Below, piece after piece: positions 28,883-30,720 of a DNA stretch of 64,000 bases. This DNA comes from Algoriphagus sp. Its GTDB lineage: Bacteria > Bacteroidota > Bacteroidia > Cytophagales > Cyclobacteriaceae. The translations under genes were made by a program, and so were the position numbers. The notes beneath the pieces are model-generated. The model saw only the letters and a program-made list of their open reading frames with translations. It was not told the origin of the DNA and ran no database searches. Within the stretch, counting starts at the first letter, position 1, and each line of letters starts with the position of its first letter. The DNA lies in the NCBI GenBank assembly GCA_030729785.1, contig JANQWS010000090.1, positions 62,001-126,000 on the forward strand, in the 5' to 3' direction.

Positions 28883-29057
28883 TTGTACGAAGCACCAAGG
28901 TGTAGTATCAGGTATCAAGTAGCTAGTATCAAGACTTTATTCGTGGTGATACGAGATTCGTATGATTCACGAATTCCCACTTCTTCATTCTTCACTTGGC
29001 GTTCAGCATTTGAAAAGAGTATTTAGTAGAAAGTATCCTGCCCGCGGCGGCGGGTAG
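28883..29057. repeat. Intergenic mosaic repeat cluster, left of the Fic gene
   Basis: GTTGTACGAAGCACCAAG / GTATCAGGTATCAAGTAGC / TGATTCACGAATTCCCACTTC (28963-28983) / CCTGCCCGCGGCGGCGGGTA (29038-29057). Related words recur at 30397-30720 and 57700-57837. Confidence 0.7.
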
Positions 29058-29140
29058 ACTGGAAGGCCAAGAACTAAGAGACATGCCTTCTTTGCGGCTT
29101 CGCGCCTTTGCGAGAGATTATTCACCCAAAGGCGCAGAAA

Positions 29141-29205
29141 CCTGCCTGCCGTAGGCAGGCGGGTATTTCAATCTTATTTCGCCTGCCCGCCGTGGCGGGT
29201 ATTTC
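29141..29205. repeat. GC-rich palindromic repeats
   Basis: CCTGCCTGCCGTAGGCAGGCGGGTATTTC (29141-29169) and GCCTGCCCGCCGTGGCGGGTATTTC (29181-29205). Confidence 0.8.
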
Positions 29206-29230
29206 CCCACTGTAAACAAAATCGACAAAT

Positions 29231-29319
29231 CTTTACATATGGAGATATATATGTAAAGAAAATGCTTGTTTTCTTTACATAAGAGAATACCTTTGTAAAG
29301 AAAATCAATTTTTCTTTAC
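29231..29319 (+). promoter_or_regulatory. Cluster of inverted CTTTACATA/TATGTAAAG half-sites upstream of the Fic gene (putative operator)
   Basis: CTTTACATAT (29231-29240)/ATATGTAAAG (29249-29258); TTTTCTTTAC (29269-29278)/GTAAAGAAAA (29295-29304); TTTTCTTTAC (29310-29319), ending 5 bp before the ATG at 29325. Confidence 0.7.
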
Positions 29320-29324
29320 ATATA

Positions 29325-30392
29325 ATGGTCTGGAAACTAGTCCCCTTACCCTATGCCGAAGATTTGGAAACCAAATCCATCCTCAAGCAGCTGCCTGCCG
29401 CACATGCTGCCATGGCAGAATTGAAGGGAATCGTTCGATCGATCCCCAATCAGATCATCCTGCTCAACACATTGGGAATTCAGGAAGCAAAAGACAGTTC
29501 CTCCGTCGAAAACATCATCACGACCCACGACGACTTGTACAAAGCCAACCTTGACTTTGAAGTCAACACCTCTCCAGCTATCAAAGAAGTACAAAACTAC
29601 GTAGCTGCGATGAAGCGGGGATTTGAGTTGGTGCAGACTCAGGGTCTGCTCACCAATCAGACTATCCTAAAGATTCAAGAGATCTTGGAAGGCAACAACG
29701 CTGGGTTTAGAAGGCTTCCTGGCACAACACTAAAAAATACCCAAACCGGAGAAATCGTCTACCTCCCACCACAAGACCCTACTGAAATCGGCAGCCTGAT
29801 GGGCAATCTGGAGCAGTTTATCAACAATTCAGAGCTGAGCGACTACGATCCACTTGTGAAGATGGCCATCATTCACTACCAGTTTGAAAGCATCCACCCC
29901 TTCTACGATGGAAACGGACGGACAGGAAGGATTCTGAACATTCTCTATCTGGTTTTGACCGGTCTACAAAAGCTTCCCATTCTTTACCTGAGCAGCCACA
30001 TCATCCGAAATAAGCCGGATTACTACCGATTGCTGCAGGGGGTAAGAGAAAATGGAGACTGGGAAAGTTGGATCAGCTACATGATCCAAGGTGTGGAAAA
30101 CACCGCTAGAGAAACCATACTTCTGATCGAGGAACTTAAAGTCCTGATCGCTGAGATGCAAGTTGTGCTTCGTACTCGATATAAATTCTATTCCCAAGAA
30201 TTGCTCAACAATCTCTTTGAGCATCCTTACACCAAAATTGAATTTCTCGTGCGCGATCTTGGCGTCTCCCGCATCACAGCCGCCAACTACCTCAATCAAT
30301 TAGCTGCCGACGGAGTACTGCGAAAAGAAAGACTGGGTACTGGGAATTATTATGTGAATGAAAAACTATTTGCGCTGATGAGTAGGAAGTAA
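29325..30392 (+). CDS. Fic family protein with N-terminal Fic_N region and C-terminal winged-helix-like region
   Basis: Core motif 'HPFYDGNGRTGR'; inhibitory-type motif 'SSSVEN'; C-terminal 'LVRDLGVSRITAANYLNQLAADGVLRKERLGTGNYYVNE'. Confidence 0.93.
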   Translation: MVWKLVPLPYAEDLETKSILKQLPAAHAAMAELKGIVRSIPNQIILLNTLGIQEAKDSSSVENIITTHDDLYKANLDFEVNTSPAIKEVQNYVAAMKRGFELVQTQGLLTNQTILKIQEILEGNNAGFRRLPGTTLKNTQTGEIVYLPPQDPTEIGSLMGNLEQFINNSELSDYDPLVKMAIIHYQFESIHPFYDGNGRTGRILNILYLVLTGLQKLPILYLSSHIIRNKPDYYRLLQGVRENGDWESWISYMIQGVENTARETILLIEELKVLIAEMQVVLRTRYKFYSQELLNNLFEHPYTKIEFLVRDLGVSRITAANYLNQLAADGVLRKERLGTGNYYVNEKLFALMSRK

Positions 30393-30396
30393 TAAT

Positions 30397-30720
30397 TTGT
30401 ACGAAGTACAAAGTACAATGTACCAAGTAATGCGAATTCAGGGCCTGATTGAAATCCCTACTTCGTACTTGGCCTGTCCGCCGCGGCGGGTACCTGATAC
30501 ATTGTACAATTTTTTTTCGATATTCTTCAATCAGCGTTGGACATTCGATATTACCCACTGCGGCCTACCTGCCGTAGCCAGGCGGGCAGGCAAGAAACGA
30601 GACTCGTTGTGGGACGTGTTTCGTCTGATTCACAAATTCCCACTTCAACCTTCGACACTAACTTAGATTCCGTACTTCGTATTTCTAACTTCGTATTTCC
30701 TCCTCGTACCTCGTACAATA
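30397..30720. repeat. Intergenic mosaic repeat cluster, right of the Fic gene
   Basis: TTTGTACGAAGTACAAAGTACAATGTACCAAGTAA (30397-30430), GGCCTGTCCGCCGCGGCGGGTAC (30471-30493), CCTACCTGCCGTAGCCAGGCGGGCAGGC (30563-30590), TGATTCACAAATTCCCACTTC (30626-30646), CGTACTTCGTATTTCTAACTTCGTATTTCCTCCTCGTACCTCGTACAATACC. Confidence 0.75.

What the first reader, a model, noticed from the sequence alone, without database searches (positions are those of the whole stretch)
29231..29319. Five inverted half-sites packed directly upstream of the Fic start codon
Seen: two perfect 10-bp inverted pairs, CTTTACATAT/ATATGTAAAG and TTTTCTTTAC/GTAAAGAAAA, plus a fifth TTTTCTTTAC half-site ending 5 bp before the ATG, all within about 90 bp. 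This is far denser than expected by chance. Inference: an operator recognised by the Fic protein's own winged helix, i.e. an autoregulatory Fic switch linking AMPylation and DNA binding. I am not aware of a detailed description of such a circuit.
Basis: partly seen in the sequence, partly recalled or inferred. Interest (0 to 1): 0.68.

Follow-up and report, generated by a model that had tools for sequence, protein, structure and literature searches.

The report
Self-addressed DNA sites beside Fic toxin
A bacterial anti-phage enzyme gene (SoFic) carries beside it a regularly spaced row of mirror-image DNA sites that its own DNA-binding tail almost certainly reads; across bacteria the sites and the tail change together, and some phages carry copies of the sites without the gene.

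Summary
Upstream of the Fic start there are six alternating half-sites, forming three palindromes (GTAAAG-N13/14-CTTTAC) about 41-42 bp apart. They overlap a Bacteroidota promoter (TTG-N19-TACCTTTG). The gene belongs to the SoFic anti-phage AMPylase family, which has a C-terminal winged helix.

In 81 loci the half-sites alternate with fixed 19/20 and 22 bp offsets. An exact palindrome occurs in 11 of 242 genomes of the order, and in 10 of those it lies beside a SoFic gene. Of 77 non-redundant SoFic genes from several phyla, 69 have a significant palindrome or array next to them. The geometry is kept, but the half-site sequence has diverged.

The half-site follows the recognition helix: R316 goes with TG, E316 with C, hydrophobic 317 with an A/T core (100 of 100), polar 317 mostly with a G/C core (20 of 26). 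Autorepression is likely but not shown; a more distant Fic, CccR, is a published precedent.

Two things are unexpected. About a quarter of the family has the array downstream of the gene. Fic-less phage contigs carry the same arrays, possibly as decoys.

The parts
29212..29236 (.). Palindrome P1, GTAAACAAAATCGACAAATCTTTAC (left arm degenerate)
29253..29278 (.). Palindrome P2, GTAAAGAAAATGCTTGTTTTCTTTAC
   Evidence: Exact dyad; 34.6 bits
29295..29319 (.). Palindrome P3, GTAAAGAAAATCAATTTTTCTTTAC, between the -7 box and the start codon
   Evidence: Exact dyad; 35.5 bits
29266..29268 (+). Predicted -33 TTG element
   Evidence: 19 bp before the -7 box; TTG found 19-21 bp before a TAnnTTTG box 28 times in the relatives
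29288..29295 (+). Predicted Bacteroidota -7 box TACCTTTG (TAnnTTTG), overlapping the left arm of P3
   Evidence: TAnnTTTG within 120 bp upstream in 66 of 81 loci, 0.08 expected per 120 bp; consensus from PMC7366714
29325..30392 (+). SoFic-family Fic protein, 355 aa: Fic_N (20-101), Fic (109-209), SoFic-like_C (281-348); inhibitory helix motif DSSSVEN, catalytic motif HPFYDGNGRTGR
   Evidence: Pfam PF13784, PF02661 and PF21248; PADLOC SoFic 390.9 bits; SoFic crystal structures are the best PDB hits, E about 1e-75 to 1e-79
30225..30356 (+). Helix-turn-helix and wing of the C-terminal domain (residues 301-344); recognition helix residues 316-328, coding 30270-30308, with R316 at its first position
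   Evidence: AlphaFold2 model: H305-312, H316-328, E333-337, E340-344; R316 is the residue best predicting the half-site

Best explanation
The repeat is an operator array for the SoFic protein itself. SoFic dimers bind each palindrome through the C-terminal winged helix. Up to three dimers sit side by side on one face of the helix, because half-sites alternate every 19 and 22 bp (about two turns) and palindromes repeat every 41-42 bp (about four turns). Bound protein covers the -33 region, the -7 box TACCTTTG and the transcript start, so it should repress its own gene and keep a toxic AMPylase low until induction. Shown here by computation: the array, its conserved geometry, its link to the gene, its overlap with a promoter consensus, and coevolution with the recognition helix. 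Inferred: binding itself, cooperativity, and repression rather than activation. Not shown: any effect of DNA binding on AMPylation, or of phage infection on binding.
For: Half-sites alternate with offsets 19/20 (160 of 161 inward pairs) and 21-23 (109 outward pairs) in 81 loci of 62-100% identity. Exact palindromes occur in 11 of 242 genomes of the order; in 10 of the 11 they lie within about 110 bp of a SoFic gene. A palindrome score of 13 or more is found upstream of 66% of 159 fic genes, against 2 of 109 other genes in the same loci. 69 of 77 non-redundant SoFic genes have a palindrome or array that at most 1 of 40 dinucleotide shuffles reaches. The column best predicting the half-site after correcting for the rest of the protein is R316 (partial r 0.58, z 5.2, next 3.2), the first residue of the recognition helix. 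R316 goes with TG (126 proteins), E316 with C at that place (12 proteins). Residue 317 hydrophobic: 100 of 100 A/T-only cores; polar: 20 of 26 with G/C. The same helix SRITAS/SRPTAT goes with TGTAWAG in distant branches (L126, L131, L140), while a change to SRK inside the SRI clade goes with TGGGWAG (L108). TAnnTTTG overlaps the last palindrome in most relatives. Precedent: CccR.
Against: No binding or expression data for any SoFic. In 18 of 77 genes only the downstream side is significant, which promoter repression does not explain, though some of these could be terminators. The phylogenetically corrected test for residue 317 goes the right way in every informative pair (about 4 to 0) but is too small for significance (p 0.125). 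Among R316 proteins alone, residue 317 by simple identity is not a top column (rank 81); the pattern appears only when residues are grouped as hydrophobic or polar, a grouping chosen after seeing the table. The E316 proteins fall in one clade. Half-site phase was partly curated by hand.
Confidence: 0.82

Rival explanations
1. The sites are bound by SoFic, but their main role is to hold and control the enzyme (storage, inhibition or activation on DNA), with promoter repression secondary. This would explain arrays downstream of the gene.
For: Downstream-only arrays in 18 of 77 genes, many of them after a close co-directional gene; in a Coxiella Fic, DNA binding changes AMPylation (title and discussion of PMC10628234); the SoFic C-terminal domain is needed for toxicity (PMC12249575); Fic-less phage arrays.
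Against: In the window's own clade the array sits on the promoter in essentially every relative, and its last palindrome is built around the -7 box. No enzymology.
Confidence: 0.25
2. A different transcription factor binds the array and controls fic.
For: Binding by SoFic has not been measured.
Against: Sites follow the fic gene across families, plasmids and phyla and differ between genomes; the half-site tracks residues of SoFic's own recognition helix; no other copies of the exact site in the window's genome.
Confidence: 0.06
3. The inverted repeats act as RNA: hairpins, an attenuator, or a repeat-RNA antitoxin as in type III toxin-antitoxin systems.
For: Tandem palindromes next to a toxin gene resemble ToxI-type arrays at first sight; downstream arrays would be transcribed.
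Against: P1 and P2 lie upstream of the predicted transcript start. Arms of one palindrome are no more complementary to each other than to arms of other palindromes (mean mismatches 2.51 against 2.34), as expected for independent DNA half-sites and not for hairpins.
Confidence: 0.05
4. Chance or AT-rich low-complexity sequence.
For: The region is AT-rich (26% G+C against 45% in the window).
Against: Markov and shuffle controls, 81-locus conservation of spacing, and control genes.
Confidence: 0.01

Closest known systems
CccR of Yersinia pseudotuberculosis (Fic plus C-terminal HTH; PMC9755527)
   Same: Fic AMPylase with a DNA-binding C-terminal domain that binds an inverted repeat in its own promoter and represses its own gene; class II inhibitory helix; dimer.
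   Different: A different Fic branch (29% identity over 45% to SoFic in the paper); one palindrome with a 26-bp spacer (AGATAATCAT-N26-ATGATAATCT) bound by a back-to-back dimer, not a 41-bp periodic array with 13-14 bp between cores; secreted effector.
SoFic/Sofic anti-phage AMPylase (Shewanella SoFic 3EQX/3ZCN; E. coli Sofic; PMC3667792, PMC12249575)
   Same: Same family, domain order, inhibitory helix and catalytic motif.
   Different: No operator or DNA binding described for SoFic in the papers read; the E. coli gene was described with a small downstream antitoxin AS1, not looked for here.
Coxiella CbFic2 (PMC10628234)
   Same: Fic with HTH that binds DNA, with AMPylation and deAMPylation affected by DNA.
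   Different: DUF4172-type Fic; tested on random DNA, no specific site known.
phd-doc and other self-regulated toxin-antitoxin operons
   Same: Palindromes over the toxin promoter, cooperative autorepression (own knowledge).
   Different: There the antitoxin carries the DNA-binding domain; here one protein is both enzyme and predicted repressor.

Membership tests
SoFic-family AMPylase | Fic_N + Fic + SoFic-like_C domain order | tested here: met
   PF13784, PF02661 and PF21248 all above cut-off; PADLOC SoFic 390.9 bits
SoFic-family AMPylase | NCBIfam SoFic equivalog cut-off (550 bits) | tested here: not met
   368.8 bits over nearly the full length: same wider family, not the strict equivalog of that model
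SoFic-family AMPylase | Catalytic HPFx[D/E]GNGRxxR and inhibitory (S/T)xxxE(G/N) | tested here: met
   HPFYDGNGRTGR and SSSVEN in the translation; both regions invariant or nearly so in 26 relatives
Sofic anti-phage system | Protects against phage | not testable with these tools
   Needs plaque assays
Self-repressing Fic-HTH (CccR type) | Palindromic site over the gene's own promoter | tested here: met
   P1-P3 overlap TTG-N19-TACCTTTG
Self-repressing Fic-HTH (CccR type) | The protein binds that site and represses its gene | not testable with these tools
   Supported only indirectly by helix/half-site covariation
Self-repressing Fic-HTH (CccR type) | 10-bp arms separated by 26 bp | tested here: not met
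   Arms separated by 5-6 bp (13-14 bp between GTAAAG cores), in arrays
Type III toxin-antitoxin (repeat RNA) | Transcribed repeat RNA as antitoxin | tested here: not met
   Arms not co-varying within palindromes; P1 and P2 lie upstream of the predicted start
Bacteroidota primary promoter | TAnnTTTG at -7 and TTG near -33 | tested here: met
   TACCTTTG 29288-29295, TTG 29266-29268; 66 of 81 loci have the box; consensus in PMC7366714

The most novel reading that the evidence does not exclude
The SoFic address array is more than a promoter operator. DNA-bound SoFic is held inactive, or switched, by its array wherever the array lies (upstream or downstream), and phages of Bacteroidota carry free-standing arrays of the same geometry as DNA decoys that soak up SoFic during infection: a counter-defence made of DNA sites rather than protein. 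Evidence that does not exclude it: 18 of 77 genes with only downstream arrays; about 15 viral contigs with three or four in-phase half-sites and no SoFic gene found, of which the 13 whole records searched have no Fic domain at all. Pairs at the array gap have a further in-phase half-site in 10 of 27 distinct contigs, against 0 of 11 at a control gap.
Probability: 0.2. Interest if true: 0.85.

Novelty: new variant of a known kind. Interest (0 to 1): 0.64.

Why it matters
SoFic is a toxic anti-phage enzyme whose winged helix had no known DNA target (PMC10628234). These data supply the target, a testable recognition code (316 Arg to G, Glu to C; 317 hydrophobic to A/T) and a likely reason for the domain: keeping the toxin's own dose low. 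They give ready-made reporters and operator DNA for asking how SoFic is switched on. The rapid change of sites at constant geometry suggests that each SoFic keeps a private address, perhaps to avoid crosstalk or phage mimicry, and the phage-borne arrays make that idea testable.

Tried and rejected
RNA-hairpin reading: rejected by the arm test. Other-regulon reading: no other exact site in the window's genome; at 3 mismatches only background (4 places against 9 for the reversed-letter control). Antisense promoter in downstream arrays: TAnnTTTG found on the minus strand in only 1 of 15. Residue 317 as top predictive column by simple identity: not found (rank 81); only the hydrophobic/polar grouping separates. 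Viral TGTCGATA palindromes (39 contigs): no clear further in-phase half-sites, read as chance. Search for close SoFic genes in viral contigs: none found. Many of the 42 viral matches are repeated copies of a few coding-sequence families and were not counted.

Full report
1. The observation. In addition it has a sixth, weaker half-site GTAAACAAAA at 29212. The half-sites alternate in orientation, so the clean description is three inward palindromes, P1 29212-29236, P2 29253-29278 and P3 29295-29319, with successive starts 41 and 42 bp apart. The cluster is not chance: 200 Markov windows never reached more than 3 CTTTAC/GTAAAG within 110 bp, and the window has 5. The string TTTTCTTTACATAT occurs nowhere else in the 2.57-Mb assembly, which is 84% complete.

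2. The gene. The downstream ORF (29325-30392, 355 aa) is a SoFic-family Fic AMPylase: Fic_N, Fic and SoFic-like_C domains, PADLOC SoFic, closest solved structures the Shewanella SoFic set and 9vjc. It carries the inhibitory-helix motif and a full catalytic motif. It falls below the strict NCBIfam SoFic equivalog cut-off. AlphaFold2 (mean pLDDT 80.7) places a winged helix at the C-terminus, with recognition helix 316-328 and wing strands 333-337 and 340-344. Close relatives are Algoriphagus species.

3. Conservation of the array. In 80 relatives of 62-90% identity plus the window, half-sites strictly alternate: inward offset 19 or 20 bp in 160 of 161 pairs, outward offset 21-23 in all 109 pairs. 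Most loci have four to six half-sites, one has eight. Both offsets are near two helical turns, so all half-sites face the same side of the DNA.

4. Link to the gene. Across 242 genomes of the order, the exact palindrome TGTAAAGAA-N9/10-TTCTTTACA occurs in 11. In ten of these it lies within about 110 bp of a SoFic gene; the eleventh, G128, has an array next to another type of Fic gene. As a control, upstream regions of 109 other genes in the same loci reached a palindrome score of 13 in 2 cases, against 66% of 159 for fic.

5. Promoter. A Bacteroidota -7 box (TAnnTTTG; consensus in PMC7366714) lies within 120 bp upstream in 66 of 81 loci, with 0.08 expected, and it runs directly into the left arm of the last palindrome (TTTG-TAAAGA). 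In the window it is TACCTTTG 29288-29295, with TTG 19 bp upstream. Protein on P2 and P3 would cover the promoter and the transcript start.

6. The half-site diverges, the geometry does not. In more distant SoFic genes, including Cyanobacteria, Alphaproteobacteria and an enteric plasmid, palindromes of the same size flank the gene but read TGTATAG, TGATAAG, TGTTAAG, TGTCGATA, TGTCCA, TGGGAAG, AACATTAAAA, GAGGGTAAA and others. In 77 non-redundant genes, 47 have a significant array upstream only, 18 downstream only, 4 both and 8 neither, at 1 of 40 shuffles or fewer.

7. Who reads it. For 83 non-redundant proteins, each alignment column was tested for how well it predicts half-site difference after removing the effect of distance in residues 1-275. 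R316 came first, partial r 0.58, z 5.2; the next column had z 3.2. R316 is the first residue of the recognition helix. R316 proteins (126) have TG-type half-sites; the 12 E316 proteins have C at the same distance from the centre. This is the familiar Arg-G and Glu-C pairing (own knowledge). Among R316 proteins, hydrophobic 317 goes with A/T-only cores in 100 of 100 and polar 317 with G/C in 20 of 26. Removing close relatives keeps the pattern: at 70% identity 14 of 14 against 12 of 14. On a tree built without the winged helix, residue 317 class changed 7 times; independent pairs agree about 4 to 0, which is in the right direction but cannot reach significance. L108 (SRK, TGGGWAG) sits inside the SRI/TGTAAAG clade, and SRITAS or SRPTAT helices in distant branches go with TGTAWAG. 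Winged-helix columns (291, 303, 315, 318, 334, 342) are over-represented among the top ten when only R316 proteins are used. The 317 grouping was made after inspecting the table, so it should be re-tested on new data.

8. DNA, not RNA. Arms of one palindrome mismatch each other as much as arms of different palindromes in the same array (2.51 against 2.34). P1 and P2 lie upstream of the predicted start.

9. Mechanism. The simplest account is cooperative autorepression by SoFic dimers on a helically phased operator array over the promoter. Shown: array, conservation, coupling to the gene, promoter overlap, helix/half-site coevolution. Inferred: binding, cooperativity, repression. Untested: effect of AMPylation or of infection.

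10. What does not fit. The downstream arrays, for example L114, where the first palindrome spans the stop codon, cannot be promoter operators of fic in the usual way. Many of these fic genes follow a close co-directional gene.

11. Phage arrays. Viral contigs hold the palindrome in 42 records against 4 for the reversed-letter control; many are repeats of a few coding sequences, but L185, L191, L203, L205, L211, L215, L218 and L223 have a further half-site at the array gap. Three of four TGTATAG matches are arrays as well. Outward pairs at the array gap have an additional in-phase half-site in 10 of 27 distinct contigs; at a control gap 0 of 11. No SoFic relative was found in the fetched loci, and no Fic domain in the 13 whole records searched; these may be fragments. 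Neighbours judged by eye from translations include terminase-like and thyX-like genes, and tRNA genes found by ARAGORN. Decoys are one reading.

12. Comparison. CccR is the nearest described circuit (PMC9755527), with a different dimer and a 26-bp spacer. Kinch et al. suggested in 2009 that Fic-linked HTH domains may regulate fic (PMC2686095). For SoFic, DNA binding had not been demonstrated by 2023 (PMC10628234), and the 2025 structural paper does not mention it in the passages read (PMC12249575). The library is open access only, so an unseen report is possible.

Noticed in passing
L107, L111, L114, L115, L116, L119, L123, L124, L125, L137, L138, L171, L176, L181: SoFic genes with the palindrome array just downstream of the stop codon instead of upstream; many follow a close co-directional gene.
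   Followed up: partly
Viral loci L185, L191, L203, L205, L211, L215, L218, L223, L268, L270, L271, L284, L287, L289: Fic-less viral contigs with arrays of SoFic-type half-sites at the same gaps, mostly between genes and sometimes beside tRNA genes.
   Followed up: partly
L204 1380-1515: Viral contig with tandem palindromes at about 43 bp that mix half-site types (TCATGTATTAAA/TCATGTTCA and TGTAAAG), as if addressed to several SoFic specificities.
   Followed up: no
L129 (G128 C17) 2344-2420: SoFic-type array in a genome with no SoFic match, about 300 bp past the end of a different Fic gene (929-2038); possibly a relic.
   Followed up: no
L171 downstream of 1868; L113 upstream of 1486: The two palindromes of an array are inverted copies of each other including the central spacer, so the whole array is itself a long inverted repeat.
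   Followed up: no
window 29040-29055, 29140-29165, 29180-29200, 30470-30490, 30565-30592: GC-rich repeat pieces (CCTGCCTGCCGTAGGCAGGCGGGT-like) scattered in intergenic DNA around the fic gene, resembling a small palindromic interspersed element.
   Followed up: no
Flavobacterial loci such as L062, L069, L073 upstream of fic: The middle palindrome uses TGATAAG arms while the last uses TGTAAAG/TGTATAG; TGATAA resembles the CccR half-site ATGATAATCT from a distant Fic.
   Followed up: no
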